This document shows, piece after piece, positions 8,830 to 8,995 of a DNA stretch of 64,000 nucleotides. Origin of the DNA: Actinomycetota bacterium (GTDB taxonomy: Bacteria; Actinomycetota; Thermoleophilia; Solirubrobacterales; Solirubrobacteraceae); assembly GCA_005888335.1 (NCBI GenBank), contig VAWY01000122.1, forward strand, positions 19,125-83,124, given 5' to 3'. How positions within the stretch are numbered: the stretch's first letter is position 1; every line of letters starts with the position of its first letter. The notes under the pieces were generated by a model. The model saw nothing but the letters and a program-made list of their open reading frames with translations, was not told where the DNA came from and did no database searches. The position numbers were made by a program, and so were the translations under genes.

Positions 8830-8995
8830 GATGGCTGATTCCGCGGCCGCCGTGCCCGGATGGCCGTGCATCGTGGATGCCGGGCGCCGCACGCCGGACC
8901 GGAACAGTGCTGGCAGCACGGGCCGGTCCGGCGGGTGGCGATCCGGCGCCGCGAGGCGCGGTCAGCCGGGTGCGGGGGTCGTGGAATCAGCCATC
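8830..8995 (+). ncRNA. Structured repeat element, copy A (candidate RNA)
   Basis: A 166-bp element fills the gap between divergent hadA and galK. Its ends pair as a 19-bp helix (8830-8848 with 8977-8995) whose outer 13 bp are perfect. Inside are hairpins GCATC-GTG-GATGC (8868-8880), GTGCT-GGC-AGCAC (8907-8919) inside a 10-bp stem, and GCGCC-GCGA-GGCGC (8946-8959) with a GNRA loop. A second copy lies at 47987-48185: 8856-8893 differs at one base and 8916-8961 is identical. Differences in the end helix and one hairpin are compensatory. G-T pairs in the helix make the plus strand the likely RNA. A short frame spans it, but substitutions do not look like protein selection. Confidence 0.55.

What the first reader, a model, noticed from the sequence alone, without database searches (positions are those of the whole stretch)
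8830..8995. Dispersed structured element with compensatory base changes (copy A, before galK)
Two copies of one element were found (8830-8995 plus; 47987-48185 minus). Two core blocks are almost unchanged (38 nt with one difference; 46 nt identical). The ends form a 19-20 bp helix in both copies, yet differ in sequence: pair 2 is A-U versus G-C, pair 11 U-A versus C-G, pair 12 C-G versus G-U. The inner hairpin is GTGCT/AGCAC versus GTGCC/GGCAC. A transposon's end repeats would be kept in sequence; here pairing is kept instead. G-U pairs on one strand give an RNA direction, which is the sense of the downstream gene in both copies. No known riboswitch class was recognised. One complication: the galK -10 box starts right after this copy, so the RNA may not be the normal galK leader.
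Basis: partly seen in the sequence, partly recalled or inferred. Interest (0 to 1): 0.85.

Follow-up and report, generated by a model that had tools for sequence, protein, structure and literature searches.

The report
Mobile hairpin element with conserved motif
Two repeats in this bacterial genome belong to a family of jumping DNA hairpins about 160 bases long, whose arms differ from copy to copy while the folded shape and one small motif inside it stay the same.

Summary
In detail: both copies exist and fold over their whole length (z -14.4 and -8.6). Relatives show a family with strong covariation (96.3% of cells paired; score 0.430 against 0.188 shuffled and at most 0.112 slid). But it is mobile. 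Full-length copies end in GATGGTTGATTCC-type inverted repeats beside TA, and such ends also bound insertion sequences of about 1 kb with IS982-family transposases. An empty site shows insertion into a TAG stop codon with TA duplicated. A wider superfamily of about 33 groups with different arms and several kinds of ends shares one motif, GAUCGUGGAUGCC facing GGCGCCGCGAGA, with an A that is unpaired in every representative and a G·A-type internal loop. In the arms G·T outnumbers A·C 167 to 32, and the motif strand folds better in 33 of 33: one strand is selected to fold. Best reading: a MITE-type element whose motif strand works folded, probably as RNA. Binding partner and host effect are unknown. 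New variant of a known kind.

The parts
8830..8995 (+). Copy A: full-length element, one hairpin of 166 nt
   Evidence: 150.5 bits on +, 68.5 on -
8830..8848 (+). Copy A left terminal inverted repeat / outer end of the hairpin, GATGGCTGATTCCGCGGCC
   Evidence: same type of ends on insertion sequences of relatives
8977..8995 (+). Copy A right terminal inverted repeat
8996..8997 (.). TA flank (half of the expected TA duplication; the left flank of copy A is CA)
8870..8881 (+). 5' half of the conserved motif, ATCGTGGATGCC; the A that is unpaired in all 33 group representatives is 8877
8945..8956 (+). 3' half of the conserved motif, GGCGCCGCGAGG
47987..48185 (-). Copy B: element between ndk and maf; core conserved, outer arms diverged, extra side hairpin, no TA flanks
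   Evidence: relatives parsed have no motif here
48055..48150 (-). Copy B core that matches the family model (68.3 bits)

Best explanation
A small non-autonomous mobile element of MITE type whose whole length is a single hairpin. The subfamily of copy A is moved by IS982-type transposases that recognise the GATGGTTGATTCC-type inverted repeats and insert at TA, often the TA of a stop codon (shown: shared ends, TA flanks, empty site; inferred: that this transposase does the cutting). Other subfamilies have other ends, some with 3-bp TNA repeats, so they probably use other transposases (inferred). The motif-bearing strand is under selection to fold as a single strand (supported by covariation and by the one-sided G.U and G.A excess in groups with different arms). 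I infer that this strand acts as RNA: the central motif, an unpaired A beside wobble pairs and a G.A-type internal loop, is a recognition site for a protein, the arms hold it in a long stem, and at gene ends the folded RNA shapes the 3' end or the antisense transcript of its neighbour. The RNA step and the host effect are inferred, not shown.
For: Covariation: 66 pairs, 37 with changes on both sides, 96.3% of cells paired. Strand: G.U 236 cells against A.C 10 on the 24-copy alignment; in 33 groups with different arms G.T 167 against A.C 32, 27 groups one way, 2 the other, 4 equal, motif strand more stable in 33 of 33. Mobility: ends found in 10 of 12 genomes, reversed control 0 of 12; ISs of 988-1281 bp with these ends and IS982 transposases; TA on both sides in 22 of 34 distinct full copies against a TA frequency of 0.8%; empty site; 3-6 full-length copies per genome in four genomes. 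Kept fold at shared sites in different genomes.
Against: No transcript or binding evidence. The folding strand is mostly antisense to the neighbour whose stop codon it abuts. Several carriers of the GATGG ends, such as G250, G251, G263, G264, G265, have no transposase relative at E<=1e-40. The ends do not begin 5'-AC as the IS982 review describes. Terminal helices can change much faster than the interior (G278: 8-11 of 40 against 1-3 of 127), which points to templated rewriting of arms in some cases. At shared sites 4-15 pairs per comparison are broken.
Confidence: 0.6

Rival explanations
1. The folding strand matters as single-stranded DNA, not RNA: the hairpin forms during replication or transposition and the motif is read by a transposase or a host DNA protein.
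For: The strand bias fits G.T and G.A mismatches in ssDNA too; the element is mobile; the motif strand is mostly antisense to neighbours.
Against: The associated transposases are DDE type, which act on duplex DNA by general knowledge; no single-strand transposase was looked for.
Confidence: 0.22
2. A plain decaying MITE whose arms stay complementary through mutation only: template switching within the palindrome copies one arm onto the other, with no selection for a fold.
For: Compensated changes concentrated in the ends of near-identical copies in G278; identical inner part but different ends in L102 and L128 of G274.
Against: Such correction should erase the unpaired A and internal loop, which persist, and treats both strands alike, whereas G.T exceeds A.C and G.A exceeds C.T on the motif strand in groups with different arms.
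Confidence: 0.13
3. A non-mobile cis-regulatory RNA (riboswitch-like leader) of the downstream gene.
For: Both window copies read in the sense of the downstream gene; strong covariation; a few sites are shared between genomes.
Against: Ends shared with insertion sequences, TA flanks and empty sites; many different neighbour genes; downstream gene mostly antisense; no motif between ndk and maf in the 17 relatives parsed.
Confidence: 0.05

Closest known systems
MITEs whose transcripts fold: BOX, RUP and SPRITE of pneumococcus (PMC3049150, passages read), ERIC, Correia elements and QMITE2 (PMC10969869 and PMC3049150, passages read)
   Same: Short, mostly intergenic, terminal inverted repeats, ends paired in the predicted RNA fold, target duplication, matched to insertion sequences by their ends; repeats enriched between convergent genes.
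   Different: Here arms and even ends differ from group to group while length, fold and one two-stranded motif stay; the passages I read describe no such pattern.
IS982 family insertion sequences (PMC7335449, passages read)
   Same: Transposases of the ~1-kb units with the same ends pass the NCBIfam IS982 model.
   Different: Our ends start GATGG beside TA, not 5'-AC; the small elements carry no transposase.
REP / REPIN palindromes (search listings and recall only)
   Same: Palindromic, dispersed, extragenic.
   Different: REPs are 20-40 bp (abstract text in the listing) and tied to tyrosine transposases (listing); ours are about 160 nt with TA/TNA flanks.
Integron attC sites (recalled)
   Same: Variable sequence with a conserved hairpin and unpaired bases, one strand preferred.
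   Different: By recall attC needs an integrase and R/L boxes; here the stem runs to the ends and IS-type ends are present. Not searched.

Membership tests
MITE | Short element without transposase, with terminal inverted repeats | tested here: met
   166 nt, ends paired; no conserved protein found in it beyond a short overlapping frame
MITE | Target site duplication and empty site | tested here: met
   TA on both sides in 22 of 34; empty TAG site in G385 and G386; window copies themselves lack the left TA (A) or both (B)
MITE | Ends shared with an autonomous element | tested here: met
   For the GATGG-type ends only; for GAACCTG-type ends none seen in 8 genomes
MITE | Mobilised in trans by that transposase | not testable with these tools
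   Needs a transposition assay
IS982 (the partner IS) | Transposase passes the family model | tested here: met
   145.7 and 177.8 bits, cut-off 130
[quoted passage not shown]
   Ends are GATGG beside TA; feature from PMC7335449
Rfam RNA family | Match at the curated threshold | tested here: not met
   Window: two tRNAs only; 18 loci: none
Structured RNA under selection | Covariation above shuffled and slid controls | tested here: met
   no tree-aware test (R-scape) was run
Structured RNA under selection | A transcript of the folding strand | not testable with these tools
   No RNA-seq available
REP / REPIN | Association with a REP-type tyrosine transposase | not tested
   Not searched

The most novel reading that the evidence does not exclude
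The motif with its long stem is a structured RNA (or ssDNA) parasite in its own right that rides different transposases by exchanging its transposon ends: it keeps a recognition site, a fold and a nearly fixed length while both arms are rewritten together.
Probability: 0.3. Interest if true: 0.9.

Novelty: new variant of a known kind. Interest (0 to 1): 0.72.

Why it matters
Short mobile repeats are usually recognised by sequence. Here fold, length and a small two-stranded motif persist while the arms and even the transposon ends change, so sequence searches catch only fragments of the family. It makes a question directly testable: whether a folded nucleic acid is part of how such elements survive or move, and which protein reads the motif in these bacteria.

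Tried and rejected
No match in plasmid or phage records for copy A, nor for an exact motif pattern in viral contigs. The 20-mer scan of genome contigs gave six hits in scattered taxa; I took them for chance by their taxa, did not inspect them, and used three of them to reach genome handles. A first relative search with acetyl-CoA synthetase was useless because of paralogues. A local-hairpin riboswitch layout was considered and dropped because the full-length hairpin is the predicted minimum and covaries. The GAACCTGTTTCAAAAT ends were sought in 8 genomes: 5 had matches, mostly pairs about 167-168 bp apart and one of 61 bp; the only wider pairing (G370 contig 20) reads as two small elements. 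The extension script over-extended in GC-rich flanks; its end positions were not used. Gene calls for context are a GC3 heuristic; six double-fetched loci were removed, one element (L040) is still counted twice there, and mis-assigned the neighbours of window copy B. The grouping into 33 is greedy at 75% inner identity, hence approximate; one representative, L123, may be a chance match (z -1.9). In one search the script mis-parsed L116. No description of this family was found by the searches; the library holds only open-licence papers, and of the papers listed I read passages of three.

Full report
WHAT IS THERE. The two copies are as described. Copy A is one imperfect hairpin over its whole length (-153 kcal/mol for 167 nt, z -14.4); copy B folds likewise with an added side hairpin (z -8.6). 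No Rfam family matches. No whole genome is held for the window.

RELATIVES. In a sample of 246 genomes the window's FolC is closest to G124, G103, G221 and G157 (62-66% identity). In the family of G124, copy A as query matched 49 of 146 genomes at E<=1e-3, with at most 5 candidates scored per genome; the weak hits near the limit may be chance. From 49 loci with a hit, 29 sequences (copy A included) line up at full length without gaps, after dropping four extractions of the same length that are not full elements (L022, L023, L033, L036); all 29 fold into a long hairpin, -121 to -152 kcal/mol. A covariance-model search of four genomes found 3-6 full-length copies in each, plus partial ones (at most 150 candidates scored per genome).

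COVARIATION. I aligned 24 of the 29; the five dropped (L024, L025, L030, L053, L054) fold but have divergent interiors. RNAalifold gives 66 pairs, 37 with changes on both sides. 96.3% of cells pair (shuffles 83.1%); covariation score 0.430 (shuffles 0.188, none of 500 as high; slides at most 0.112). The shuffle control ignores relatedness, and no tree-aware test was run. Unpaired features are also kept, among them a bulged A and facing G.A mismatches.

IT IS MOBILE. Most ungapped copies read TA-GATGGTTGATTCC ... GGAATCAACCATC-TA or close to it. The end pattern occurs in 10 of 12 genomes, reversed control 0 of 12. Besides ~166-nt elements and a few shorter palindromes, such ends bound units of 988-1281 bp: five in G384, one in G375, one in G299. 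The open transposases of G375 and G299 match DDE_Tnp_1 and pass the IS982 model (177.8 and 145.7 bits, cut-off 130). Relatives of the G299 transposase are in 17 of 146 genomes at E<=1e-40; of 12 loci from that search 6 show the same or very similar ends, four of them in genomes not seen before (G262, G268, G300, G359). 22 of 34 distinct full copies have TA on both sides (TA frequency 0.8%). With the flanks of four G384 sites joined, matches run across the junction at three of the four sites in both sister genomes G385 and G386. I aligned two of these sites: one is clean (filled GCGTA[element]TAG; empty GCGTAG and GCCTAG, a stop codon), the other is empty but too diverged to read a duplication. 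For copy B, 30 ndk loci were fetched out of 135 genomes with a match; my parser read ndk in 17, none of these held the motif, and the distance from the ndk stop to the maf LAS motif was 2-197 nt in the 16 where it was found. Copy B therefore looks like a lineage-specific insertion.

A WIDER SUPERFAMILY. Several BLAST hits covered only the middle of the element and sit in hairpins with other outer arms and ends. The pattern CGYGGATGCN{50,80}GGCGCCGCGAG gave 49 sites in 24 of 146 genomes, against 19 for the reversed control. A stricter pattern gave 28 sites in 11 of 399 genomes drawn from the class, control 0; all 11 belong to the 146, and how many of the 399 do was not counted. An exact pattern misses diverged copies, copy A among them. 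Of 61 motif sites in held sequence 55 fold with z<=-5 (median -10.2) and four have z>-3, probably chance sites. 57 distinct sites form about 33 groups by inner sequence. Invariance inside the searched pattern is by construction, but three neighbouring 5' positions (A, U, C) are each kept in 30 of 33, and the BLAST-based alignment A4 conserves the same columns. In the 33 folds the A of GGAUGCC is never paired and the loop positions next to the motif are paired in 3-27%. Ends differ: GAACCTGTTTCAAAATGA, GGGTCCG and others. For 17 hand-picked loci the script found exact 3-bp direct repeats in 8, and lengths of 155-165 nt in 16; it mis-parsed the seventeenth, L116.

STRAND. On the 24-copy alignment G.U cells number 236 and A.C 10; in columns where a Watson-Crick pair is commonest, 69 and 9. 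In the 33 groups, with no credit for wobble when arms were matched and the motif left out, G.T is 167 and A.C 32, G.A 121 and C.T 22; 27 groups lean one way, 2 the other, 4 are equal. The motif strand (motif included) is the more stable in 33 of 33, by 26.9 kcal/mol on average. Base composition would give ratios of about 1.3 and 1.2 (my arithmetic). Because the groups differ in arm sequence, this is unlikely to be one inherited pattern. One strand is selected to fold; RNA is the usual reason, ssDNA is not excluded.

CONTEXT. Many elements abut stop codons, as expected if TA and TNA in GC-rich genomes lie largely in stops (inference). In 84 places, after removing six double-fetched loci and the window, both neighbours are antisense in 28 and both sense in 6; the downstream gene is antisense in 65, sense in 16, unknown in 3 (sums; the tandem bias is 11 to 4 for GATGG-ended elements and 17 to 2 for the rest; before removal 29 to 7). 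This goes against a simple leader RNA. A few sites are shared between genomes: after an hppA-like gene (three genomes), after an eno-like gene (two), before a trpD-like gene (two), before an ABC ATPase gene (two) (gene names by recall). There the hairpin is kept with 2-8 double changes per comparison, and 4-15 broken pairs, most in the trpD-like pair.

AGAINST MY READING. Close copies in G278 differ mostly in the terminal helix (8-11 of 40) and hardly inside (1-3 of 127), with compensation; other genomes are more even. L102 and L128 share the inner part but not the ends. Templated repair or recombination may therefore rewrite arms, though this would not give the strand bias. Several carriers lack a close transposase. 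There is no transcript evidence.

VERDICT. A real superfamily of MITE-type hairpin elements with a selected single-strand fold, for which I found no description in the searches listed. New variant of a known kind; the RNA function is a hypothesis.

Noticed in passing
window 47463-48155 (-) and 8860-11340 (+): An open frame starting inside each copy begins MAVHRGCRAPH; in copy B it runs in frame into maf, so maf may be annotated too long, and the element's right end seems to supply the first codons of maf (GTG TTC AGC CAC CTG).
   Followed up: partly
window 1-300 and 6509-6808: 85% identical repeat, apparently part of two acetyl-CoA synthetase genes (name by recall).
   Followed up: no
L060, L061, L062, L063 (G384): Five nearly identical IS copies all have the transposase reading frame split in two; dead copies moved in trans, or a programmed frameshift.
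   Followed up: no
L064 987-1038 region, L067 near 983-1032: Palindromes of 50-52 nt with the same GATGG-type ends and TA flanks: much shortened relatives.
   Followed up: no
L102 and L128 (G274): Same inner 80 nt, different outer ends on both arms: possible exchange of ends.
   Followed up: partly
G359: At least 15 IS copies related to the IS982-type element (57% identity), the one examined with GATGGTTCGTTCC ends.
   Followed up: no
G370 contigs 20, 81, 124, 125: Several elements about 168 bp between GAACCTGTTTCA-type ends, some beside matching TWA triplets; not checked for the motif.
   Followed up: no
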